IMG/VR virus record: IMGVR_UViG_3300033182_000028
Coordinates: 1-25,789 of that record
DNA length: 25,789 bases
Direction: 5' to 3' (one strand)
Origin: a virus
Shown here: piece after piece, positions 2,905 to 4,519 of the stretch
Layout: each line of letters opens with the position of its first letter
Numbering within the stretch: position 1 is the stretch's first letter
The notes under the pieces: model-generated
Seen by the model: only the letters and a program-made list of their open reading frames with translations
Databases searched by the model: none
Told to the model about the DNA's origin: nothing
Made by a program: the position numbers and the translations under genes

Positions 2905-3345
2905 TTACTTGATTTCAATCAAACGAGGTTTTTTCGCCTCTGGAATGATTCGCTCAAGTGTGATAACTAACAACCCATTTTCATAGGATGCACCTTTCAC
3001 CTCAACATCATCTGCAATAGTGAATGAACGAGTGAATGCACGAGCAGAAATACCTTTATGTAGATATTCAACTTCGTCTACAAGTTCACCGTCTTTCTCT
3101 TTTGATTTGACAACAAGAGTATTCTCTTTTGTCTCAATTTCAATATCATCTTTATTGAAACCAGCAACTGCTACTTGAATTGCGTAGTCAGTGTCCGATG
3201 TCTTAATGATATTGTAAGGTGGATAGTTAGGATGAGTATTGGCACCAGAGGTCACCTCATCAAACAATCTATCAATCATTCTGTCAAAACCGACAGAGTA
3301 AGTGCGAACCCTAGTAGGGTCTAAAGCAAGAGCTGTATTTGTCAT
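2905..3345 (-). CDS. hsp20: Small heat-shock protein, IbpA-type (Hsp20)
   Basis: A 146-aa alpha-crystallin-domain chaperone, expected to bind unfolding proteins in the host cytoplasm and hold them for refolding. The N-terminal SVGFDRMIDRLFDEV, the core ARAFTRSFTIADDVEVKGAS and NGLLVITLER, and the terminal IPEAKKPRLIEIK with the I-x-I-type tail closely follow bacterial IbpA/B. I chose the ATG at 3345, with AGGAG seven bases upstream, rather than the longer frame from 3483, because homology begins here and the upstream part reads as a folded leader. The gene stands alone between its own sigma-70-like promoter and its terminator. Hsp20 is common in marine T4-like phages; its phage role is not known to me. 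The long leader suggests post-transcriptional control. Confidence 0.95.
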   Translation of the reverse strand: MTNTALALDPTRVRTYSVGFDRMIDRLFDEVTSGANTHPNYPPYNIIKTSDTDYAIQVAVAGFNKDDIEIETKENTLVVKSKEKDGELVDEVEYLHKGISARAFTRSFTIADDVEVKGASYENGLLVITLERIIPEAKKPRLIEIK

Positions 3346-3382
3346 TTTGTTTCTCCTATTAAGCAAGATACAGTTAATAAAA

Positions 3383-3507
3383 CCTTCACTCCCATAAGGC
3401 AAGTAAAGGTGATAGGTTTTTAGGGAGAACCTATCAGAAACTCTAGTTTCGTGACACAGAGTAGGTATATTCGGATGTGTCAACAGGAAGACTTACGAAC
3501 TGCTCCC
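3383..3507 (-). promoter_or_regulatory. Highly structured 5' leader of the hsp20 mRNA (candidate RNA switch or thermometer)
   Basis: Between the predicted start near 3509 and the hsp20 AUG lie about 160 noncoding bases with four consecutive hairpins: TGACACA/TGTGTCA (3476-3482 with 3452-3458), GAAAC/GTTTC (3446-3450 with 3437-3441, 4-nt loop), GATAGGTT/AACCTATC (3428-3435 with 3411-3418, 9-nt loop) and an 8-bp stem with one G-U pair (3402-3409 with 3383-3390). The loop of the third hairpin contains CUCCC, which can pair with GGGAG at the extreme 5' end (3503-3507) or with GGGAG in the last hairpin (3389-3393). The fold is read by eye only; function is inference. Confidence 0.6.
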
Positions 3508-3515
3508 TACTATTA

Positions 3516-3544
3516 TATATAAGGATTAGGGGCTGAAAAGTCAA
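3516..3544 (-). promoter_or_regulatory. Sigma-70-like promoter of hsp20
   Basis: TTGACT (3539-3544), a 17-base spacer and TATATA (3516-3521) on the minus strand, with an overlapping TATAAT at 3512-3517. A start near 3509 is expected. There is no TATAAATA late box, so early expression by host sigma is likely. Confidence 0.7.
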
Positions 3545-3549
3545 CCCCT
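3528..3549 (-). terminator. Hairpin after DUF932 gene, possible weak terminator
   Basis: AGGGGTTGA and TCAGCCCCT pair over nine bases (one G-U) around a four-base loop, 11 bases after the DUF932 stop. No U-run follows on the minus strand, so termination would be weak. The hairpin contains the -35 box of the hsp20 promoter. On the plus strand a T-rich run follows, but the stem there has a C-A mismatch. Confidence 0.35.
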
Positions 3550-3559
3550 TTTCCTTTTT

Positions 3560-4519
3560 TTATGCAGCCTCAGCGTATTGCAACGCCTTGTCTAGTGCAT
3601 TCAGTTTAACCTTGCGGTTACGTCCATACCAAGCAGACTGCAAACGAGAGTCCCCTTCACGACCTTGCAAGTGGTCAGTCATGAAAGTGACTGCGTTAAA
3701 CGCCTGCCACCATGTTCCTTCGGCAAAGTTTGCACCAGGCTGAGTTTGCAGATTTTCCATCGCAATCTTAGCGTTACGAGAAGTGAAAGGAATCACATTG
3801 TCAACCTTTTCTTTCGCAGGCGCACCAAACACCTCATTGAAGTATTGGATAACATTATCACCAGTGGCACGCTTTCCACCAAGGAATTCTGCCATTGATT
3901 TATATTGTTCCATCTTCTCACGAGCAATACCCATCTGTTCTTTCACCATGTCTGGGTCAAATGCCTTACGGTGGTTTACAGAAACCATCTGGTCAGCATT
4001 TTGTGACAGAGACAGTGTTAGAGTATTGTTACATACCACACGAATCGGTGTCATACGAATGTTGATGGATTTACCAAACTGGTGAGGATTGGTGAACAAG
4101 AAGTAGTTCTCAGTCACATCACCATTGAAGAGTTCAAAAGACTCTTTGGTTTTTGCGAGTGCCCATACCATCTGTCCATTTTTCAACGAACCAGCAGTGT
4201 GCATCTCCATATCACCAGCCATTACATAGTCATTAAAAAACTCAAACGCTTCTGAGTTCTGACAAGGTTCCCAACCTTTACCAACAACATCCAATACTGA
4301 ATTGTCCGATGAACGAACCAGTGCTTGTTTGTTCTTGATGATAACACCAGACTCGGTTGTGATATTCTCTTTACGAACATCCCAATCCAAACCAGCGGTT
4401 ACCATAAATTGGTCTGGGGTCAAATCAGCAGGAACTCGTTTACCTAGTCCATGCCATGGAACCTCACCGACATACGCCATCTGCGCTTCACCATTCACAA
4501 TCTCAAGTTCATGAGCCAT
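3560..4519 (-). CDS. DUF932 phage/plasmid-like protein
   Basis: A 319-aa soluble protein of the DUF932 family (phage/plasmid-like protein TIGR03299), whose molecular function is not established. The family signature near the start, MAYVGEVPWHGLGKRVP (about residues 14-30), is present, followed by RKENI, SVLDVVGKGWEPCQNSEAF, a central RMTPIRVVCNNTLTLSLSQ stretch (about 157-175) and the C-terminal GTWWQAFNAVTFMTDHLQGR. The length is near the family norm. The ATG has AGGAG nine bases upstream. It is transcribed from its own sigma-70-like promoter overlapping the end of the preceding small gene. Family membership is confident; any role in host takeover or DNA metabolism would be a guess. Confidence 0.88.
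   Translation of the reverse strand: MAHELEIVNGEAQMAYVGEVPWHGLGKRVPADLTPDQFMVTAGLDWDVRKENITTESGVIIKNKQALVRSSDNSVLDVVGKGWEPCQNSEAFEFFNDYVMAGDMEMHTAGSLKNGQMVWALAKTKESFELFNGDVTENYFLFTNPHQFGKSINIRMTPIRVVCNNTLTLSLSQNADQMVSVNHRKAFDPDMVKEQMGIAREKMEQYKSMAEFLGGKRATGDNVIQYFNEVFGAPAKEKVDNVIPFTSRNAKIAMENLQTQPGANFAEGTWWQAFNAVTFMTDHLQGREGDSRLQSAWYGRNRKVKLNALDKALQYAEAA

What the first reader, a model, noticed from the sequence alone, without database searches (positions are those of the whole stretch)
3346..3515. Hsp20 mRNA has a long multi-hairpin leader with switch-like alternative pairing
Seen: from the sigma-70-like promoter to the AUG there are about 160 noncoding bases with four consecutive stems of 5-8 bp, two of them perfect at 7-8 bp. 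The CUCCC in the loop of the third can pair with GGGAG at the extreme 5' end (3503-3507) or with GGGAG at 3389-3393 in the fourth. A weak UCUU/AGGA pairing can also form at the ribosome site. Known: bacterial small heat-shock genes are often controlled by RNA thermometers (ROSE, fourU), and other leaders act as riboswitches. Inference: a phage-borne temperature or metabolite sensor on hsp20. I know of no described example in T4-like phages.
Basis: partly seen in the sequence, partly recalled or inferred. Interest (0 to 1): 0.72.

Follow-up and report, generated by a model that had tools for sequence, protein, structure and literature searches.

The report
Phage heat-shock gene with RNA thermometer
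The messenger RNA of a marine phage's small heat-shock gene carries, at its ribosome-binding site, a two-hairpin element with the hallmarks of a known bacterial RNA thermometer (shared with other marine phages and with SAR11 bacteria), and in front of it a second, conserved, pseudoknotted RNA that matches no described family.

Summary
The leader is real and is two elements, not one switch. Element B (3410-3343, minus strand, at the hsp20 ribosome site) has a stable hairpin plus an SD-sequestering hairpin with the U(U/C)GCU motif and a bulged G, the architecture of short ROSE RNA thermometers. A covariance model built without the window finds it there (35 bits, E 1e-7; next hit 11 bits). It lies before hsp20 in pelagiphages, methylophages and cyanophages, and in 23 of 23 SAR11 chromosomes tested. 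Rfam ROSE_3 places its best genome-wide hit on the hsp20 start in seven phage records, always below its cut-off. Both hairpins covary. Element A (3510-3410), just downstream of a sigma-70-like promoter, is a P2-P3-pseudoknot RNA conserved with compensatory changes in methylophage- and pelagiphage-type contigs, one copy per genome, absent from the cyanophages tested and without an Rfam match; function unknown. So a temperature sensor is the best-supported reading of the proximal part; a metabolite switch is not. Thermal melting is inferred, not shown. I found no earlier report of a ROSE-type element in a phage.

The parts
3516..3550 (-). Sigma-70-like promoter of the leader: -35 TTGACT 3544-3539 inside an inverted repeat (AAGGGG...CCCCT), 17-nt spacer, -10 TATATA 3521-3516; predicted start about 3509
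   Evidence: Sequence; same arrangement, with the repeat arms changing sequence but staying complementary, in nearly all 17 printed Melnitz-type leaders (L131 lacks it). Transcription start not measured.
3410..3510 (-). Element A: about 100-nt conserved structured RNA (P2 - P3 - H-type pseudoknot)
   Evidence: Model R2: 90.5 bits here (window is in the training set); the same model finds untrained pelagiphage elements, one per genome apart from a marginal second hit in one record. No Rfam match.
3485..3508 (-). P2 hairpin with a 12-nt loop CAGUUCGUAAGU (conserved UUCGUAAG; GUAA can be closed by C3497-G3492)
   Evidence: 6 bp plus the C-G closing pair, 98% paired in 35 sequences, 3 pairs with compensatory change; paired fraction reached by 0/1000 shuffles
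3452..3482 (-). P3 hairpin, 7 bp, loop with conserved CUACUC/CUUACUC
   Evidence: 4 pairs with compensatory change, 0/1000 shuffles reach it
3410..3443 (-). H-type pseudoknot: S1 GAG 3443-3441 with CUC 3427-3425; S2 UGAUAGGUU 3436-3428 with AACCUAUCA 3418-3410; A-rich linker 3424-3419
   Evidence: S1 changes in step between relatives (GAG/CUC, GGG/CCC, CGG/CCG, AAAGAG/CUCUUU, CGCUGU/ACAGCG); score reached by 0/1000 shuffles in the window and by 0-4/1000 in 13 others
3382..3410 (-). Element B, hairpin I (SL1): 10-bp lower stem, bulged G3400, C-C/G-G upper stem, loop UUAU
   Evidence: SL1 with the bulged G found in 154 of 164 candidate hsp20-type leaders (several of the 10 misses are truncated or not hsp20); lower stem uses nearly all pair types across 89 sequences
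3352..3368 (-). Element B, hairpin II (SL2): UCUU(G)CU - UAAU - AGGAGA, U(U/C)GCU motif against the Shine-Dalgarno, bulged G3364. A window-specific alternative pairs UUUUAUUAA 3382-3374 with UUAAUAGGA 3362-3354; both cover the SD
   Evidence: Outer pair covaries over 90 leaders (U-A 27, C-G 23, A-U 12; 0.70 paired against 0.41 shuffled, 0 of 2000 shuffles); fold
3353..3357 (-). Shine-Dalgarno AGGAG
   Evidence: Sequence
3343..3407 (-). Element B as found by a model trained without the window or its two nearest relatives
   Evidence: 35.2 bits, E = 1.2e-7; next-best window hit 11.2 bits
2905..3345 (-). hsp20 coding sequence (146 aa)
   Evidence: Pfam PF00011 HSP20, E = 1.8e-19
3560..4519 (-). 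Upstream neighbour, DUF932 protein
   Evidence: Pfam PF06067, E = 6e-40

Best explanation
The hsp20 mRNA of this Melnitz-like marine phage starts with two RNA modules. The RBS-proximal module B is a short ROSE-like RNA thermometer: hairpin I is a stable 5' hairpin, and hairpin II hides the Shine-Dalgarno by imperfect pairing with UCUUGCU (one bulged G). At low temperature the SD is closed; on warming hairpin II should open and Hsp20 be made. The upstream module A is a separate, compactly folded pseudoknotted RNA starting at its own sigma-70-like promoter; most likely it is an independent phage RNA (or a stable 5' cap on read-through transcripts), not part of the sensor. Shown by sequence comparison: both structures, their conservation, position and distribution. 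Inferred: melting and translational control by B, the promoter, and any role for A.
For: Model R1, trained on 51 leaders without the window, finds B at 3343-3407 with 35.2 bits, next 11.2, and only one strong site (hsp20) in the Melnitz genome, 52.6 against 13.8 bits. Rfam ROSE_3 matches the same site in Melnitz over its full length, 34.1 bits, E = 7.8e-6 against all 4227 families; in a genome-wide search its best hit covers the hsp20 start in 7 of the 8 records with a hit (in the eighth, G005, it does not). Both hairpins carry the unpaired G as in the ROSE_3 consensus. SL1 covaries; SL2's outer pair covaries: ACUUUGCUU always with GGAGGU (48 of 48), AUCUUGCUU with GGAGA in 46 of 48. The same element precedes hsp20 in 23 of 23 SAR11 loci tested, 30-57 bits. 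Short two-hairpin ROSE elements with U(U/C)GCU against the SD are proven thermometers of the sHSP gene ibpA in Pseudomonas, and deletion of G39 represses (PMC3669281). Predicted SD opening in the window rises from 0.02 at 5 C to 0.20 at 37 C. Element A.
Against: No Rfam ROSE model reaches its gathering score anywhere, and ROSE_3 gives no hit in the window itself even at E = 10. Computed SD opening is gradual, not a sharp switch. About a quarter of the leaders (for example the UUGCUUGGAUAGG type, L017, L024) are predicted to leave the SD partly or mostly open. SD closure at hsp20 is not exceptional within a genome: rank 16 of 156 AGGA..ATG sites in Melnitz, 4 of 40 in the window. SL2's SD-facing pairs hardly vary, so its covariation rests on the outer pairs. 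No expression or probing data.
Confidence: 0.72

Rival explanations
1. Element B is a translational operator for a protein (for example phage RegA, another RNA-binding protein, or Hsp20 itself) that recognises the motif bulged G - C-Y...R-G-G present in both hairpins; temperature is not the signal.
For: SL1 apex and SL2 share GCY...RGG with the bulged G; in one sequence class they read almost alike (UGCUUGGAUAGGA and UGCUUAAUAAGGA). regA lies directly upstream of hsp20 in some cyanophages.
Against: SL1 loop and upper stem vary freely, including UUCG in cyanophages; the match to the ROSE architecture and to sHSP genes is specific; SAR11 chromosomes carry it too.
Confidence: 0.15
2. The whole 160-nt leader is one switch (riboswitch or conformational switch) with CUCCC choosing between two GGGAG partners.
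For: The complementary stretches exist in the window; conserved unpaired residues in element A could belong to an aptamer.
Against: 5' GGGAG/CUCCC pairing: no compensatory change, mismatch at one pair in nearly all of 35 relatives. CUC belongs to the conserved pseudoknot. In most relatives a late promoter separates A from B, and in Mosig A lies about 1.4 kb upstream. No riboswitch family matches.
Confidence: 0.04
3. Element A, not B, is the important feature: A is a trans-acting phage small RNA and the hsp20 leader structure is an incidental result of read-through.
For: A has its own promoter-like sequence, about one copy per genome, and sits apart from hsp20 in some phages.
Against: B is conserved more widely than A (cyanophages, SAR11) and always at the hsp20 ribosome site, so B has its own function whatever A does.
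Confidence: 0.06
4. No function: chance hairpins in an A+T-rich leader.
For: Fold energy alone is weak (z = -2.0); SD closure is not exceptional within the genome.
Against: Covariation and model scores in independent sequences.
Confidence: 0.01

Closest known systems
Short ROSE-like RNA thermometers of Pseudomonas ibpA (PMC3669281) and Rfam RF02523 ROSE_3
   Same: 5' UTR of a small heat-shock gene; two hairpins; hairpin I stable; hairpin II pairs U(U/C)GCU with the SD imperfectly; in the RF02523 consensus also the unpaired G before the CC/GG stem of hairpin I
   Different: Phage and SAR11 carriers; A+U-rich hairpin II; a T4-type late promoter motif just upstream in most relatives; scores below the RF02523 cut-off (34.1 against 43 bits at best); window not recognised by RF02523
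Other Rfam ROSE families (rhizobial, enterobacterial)
   Same: U(U/C)GCU against the SD, sHSP genes
   Different: three to four hairpins; no Rfam ROSE match other than ROSE_3 was found at the hsp20 starts scanned
fourU thermometers
   Same: the window can also pair UUUU 3382-3379 with AGGA
   Different: not predicted in the other leaders folded, so probably local to this sequence
Phage lambda cIII RNA thermometer
   Same: a phage mRNA whose ribosome site responds to temperature (described in PMC4166951)
   Different: two mutually exclusive folds, opposite sign (closed when warm), unrelated gene
SAM-II / SAM-V riboswitches (for element A)
   Same: H-type pseudoknot in marine bacteria
   Different: element A has two further hairpins, is not at a ribosome site, and matches no Rfam family
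Glutamine riboswitch and two-piece tmRNA reported in Melnitz (PMC9004378)
   Same: structured RNA in the same phage group
   Different: a different locus (tmRNA annotated at 44732-45184; element A at 136521-136620)

Membership tests
ROSE-like RNA thermometer (class) | In the 5' UTR of a small heat-shock protein gene | tested here: met
   PF00011 gene; the strong R1 hits are at hsp20 starts
ROSE-like RNA thermometer (class) | U(U/C)GCU motif paired with the SD in the 3'-proximal hairpin | tested here: met
   UUGCU 3366-3362 with AGGAG; outer pair covaries
ROSE-like RNA thermometer (class) | Imperfect pairing with a bulged or non-canonical G | tested here: met
   G3364 unpaired in SL2; bulged in most predicted folds of relatives
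ROSE-like RNA thermometer (class) | At least one further stable hairpin 5' of it | tested here: met
   SL1, covarying
ROSE-like RNA thermometer (class) | SD released and translation raised on warming | not testable with these tools
   Computed opening rises only gradually; experiment needed
Rfam RF02523 ROSE_3 | Score at or above the gathering cut-off (43 bits) | tested here: not met
   Best 34.1 bits in Melnitz; window no hit at E up to 10. So not filed as an RF02523 member, only as ROSE-like
fourU thermometer | Four U paired with AGGA, conserved | tested here: inconclusive
   Possible in the window only, not in the relatives folded
Metabolite riboswitch | Match to a known aptamer family, or a conserved aptamer joined to an expression platform | tested here: not met
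   No Rfam riboswitch; A and B usually separated by a promoter motif
MotA-dependent middle promoter (TTGCTTA box) | Box about 30 bp upstream of a start, followed by a -10 | tested here: not met
   Box lies directly before the SD; a start downstream of it would lose the SD

The most novel reading that the evidence does not exclude
Marine T4-like phages carry a ROSE-type RNA thermometer shared with SAR11 bacteria to time Hsp20 by temperature; and methylophages and pelagiphages encode next to it a new class of pseudoknotted non-coding RNA (element A, in some pelagiphages part of a larger structured region) acting independently of hsp20.
Probability: 0.5. Interest if true: 0.8.

Novelty: new variant of a known kind. 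Interest (0 to 1): 0.7.

Why it matters
A thermometer on a core gene of abundant ocean phages would tie phage protein production directly to water temperature, in a way that can be tested with a reporter in E. coli. It would be, as far as I could find, the first ROSE-type element in a virus and the first candidate in SAR11, and Rfam's ROSE models miss it at their own cut-offs. Element A adds a new, well-conserved phage RNA family of unknown function.

Tried and rejected
Plus-strand RNA ending at the inverted repeat 3528-3550: this strand folds slightly better, but the conserved promoter, genes and element B all lie on the minus strand. Element A as a tmRNA or tRNA piece: ARAGORN and Rfam negative. 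Element A as a coding gene: Melnitz annotates a 34-aa ORF there, but I saw no conserved start or frame in relatives (by eye). MotA-box reading of TTGCTTAA: rejected (position). MAFFT alignments put the pseudoknot and SL2 out of register between types, so those counts used structure-indexed parsing; where the parse was chosen by pairing I give shuffles of whole sequences rather than pair counts alone. R-scape was not available.

Full report
What is there. On the minus strand the hsp20 gene (3345-2905; Pfam HSP20) follows a DUF932 gene (4519-3560). Between them lies a sigma-70-like promoter (TTGACT, 17 nt, TATATA) and about 160 noncoding bases.

Relatives. Searches with Hsp20 proteins gave about 270 viral loci and named phages: Melnitz on OM43, Mosig and HTVC008M on SAR11, and many cyanophages. 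Reading their leaders shows two separate conserved elements. A T4-type late promoter motif TATAAATA lies between them in most relatives, but not in the window, L006 and about ten others, where hsp20 must be read through element A or from elsewhere.

Element B. Directly before the start codon, 154 of 164 candidate leaders have a hairpin with a bulged G (SL1) followed by (A/U)CUU(U)GCUU-loop-AAGGAG; some of the ten misses are truncated or are not hsp20 leaders. SL1's lower stem is built from nearly every pair type. In SL2 the SD-facing strand is fixed, but the outer pair changes in step: 70% paired against 41% after shuffling; ACUUUGCUU occurs only with GGAGGU (48 of 48) and AUCUUGCUU with GGAGA in 46 of 48. 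Folding predicts the SD closed in about three quarters of leaders at 15 C.

Element B and ROSE. An Rfam scan at relaxed threshold placed ROSE_3 on the hsp20 start of three loci, two cyanophages and phage C48C1. In Melnitz it matches over its full length with 34.1 bits (E = 7.8e-6), aligning both hairpins and both unpaired G residues. A genome-wide search gave its best hit at the hsp20 start in Melnitz, C48C1, Sf-FR1, S-RIM44, P-SSM4 and two viral contigs; in one further contig (G005) the hit is elsewhere. It never reaches the cut-off of 43 bits, and the window itself is not hit. My own model R1, trained without the window, finds the window at 35.2 bits, Melnitz only at hsp20, and 23 of 23 SAR11 chromosomal hsp20 leaders at 30-57 bits. 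Rfam's ROSE models did not see the SAR11 leaders among the loci scanned. Several other alphaproteobacterial hsp20 genes printed have U(U/C)GCU-like motifs before the SD. Two-hairpin ROSE elements of this form are proven thermometers in Pseudomonas (PMC3669281). I found no report of one in a phage or in SAR11; the library held is open-access only.

How B probably works. SL2 covers AGGAG at low temperature through six pairs interrupted by G3364; its A-U and G-U pairs should yield on warming. The window can also close the SD with UUUUAUUAA 3382-3374. Computed opening is gradual (0.02 at 5 C, 0.20 at 37 C), and the ROSE_3 consensus itself is computed as closed even at 50 C, so such computation cannot decide. 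Melting is therefore an inference from architecture.

Element A. From 3510 to 3410 lie P2 (loop CAGUUCGUAAGU), P3 and an H-type pseudoknot. In 35 Melnitz-type sequences P2, P3 and S2 (S2 counted in 20 of them) have 3, 4 and 4 compensatory pairs. S1 changes in step between relatives; in a cleanly aligned pelagiphage subset one S1 pair changes U-A to A-U and one S2 pair G-C to C-G. The pseudoknot score is matched by 0 of 1000 shuffles in the window and 0 to 4 of 1000 in thirteen others. Model R2, built from Melnitz types only, finds the pelagiphage types, generally one per genome, and none in the four cyanophage records or C48C1. In Mosig it lies about 1.4 kb before hsp20, next to the S21 gene. 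Pelagiphage types add an outer stem (e.g. TTTTACGCC...GGCGTAAAA) around P2. Rfam has no match. Function unknown; I favour an independent phage RNA, with a stabilising 5' cap as alternative.

CUCCC does face GGGAG at 3503-3507, but over 35 relatives that pairing has no compensatory change and one of its five pairs fails in nearly every sequence; CUC is instead the 3' half of S1. The second partner, GGGAG at 3389-3393, is part of SL1, which covaries on its own. A fold of one sequence suggested a switch; comparison does not.

Verdict. Observation confirmed with corrections; the temperature-sensor reading is supported for the proximal element, the metabolite and switch readings are not. Element B is filed as ROSE-like by architecture, not as a member of RF02523, whose threshold it fails.

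Noticed in passing
window 2894-2855 and 3550-3512, minus strand: Both ends of the hsp20 unit carry a hairpin whose loop holds the -35 (TTGACA, TTGACT) of the next promoter; the downstream one is also a terminator with a T-run. The upstream repeat changes both arms in step across relatives.
   Followed up: partly
L003 1080-1160, and L204, L207, L218, L246, L276: A further structured RNA next to element A in Mosig-type pelagiphages (GGGCTCATTGGTCTTTG...GGTGAGACCTACCCCAGCCC), with a second pseudoknot-like stretch in L003 at about 1255-1305; arms appear to covary. No Rfam match.
   Followed up: no
L204 1802-1872, L080 5789-5859, L004 1673-1743: tRNA-like genes (L004 called tRNA-Gly by ARAGORN) with T-loops lacking the usual UUC and unusual D-loops; Rfam tRNA hits. 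Possibly non-canonical tRNAs.
   Followed up: no
L002 4062-4166 (Melnitz gene QZI94502.1): Annotated 34-aa hypothetical protein lies on element A and is probably not a gene.
   Followed up: partly
L285 (P-HM2) 313-367: Weak element B match (16.6 bits) inside the annotated hsp20, suggesting the true start is about 70 bases downstream of the annotated one.
   Followed up: no
L299 (Rhodobacteraceae MAG, Water_Bin34): hsp20 leader almost identical to that of viral contig L141; probably phage sequence inside a bacterial bin.
   Followed up: no
pelagiphage-type element A, e.g. L080, L039: The outer stem's 5' arm (UUUUACG) could pair with the P2 loop (CGUAAG) instead of its 3' arm; a promoter-like TATATATATTAT lies between the arms. 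Unexplained.
   Followed up: no
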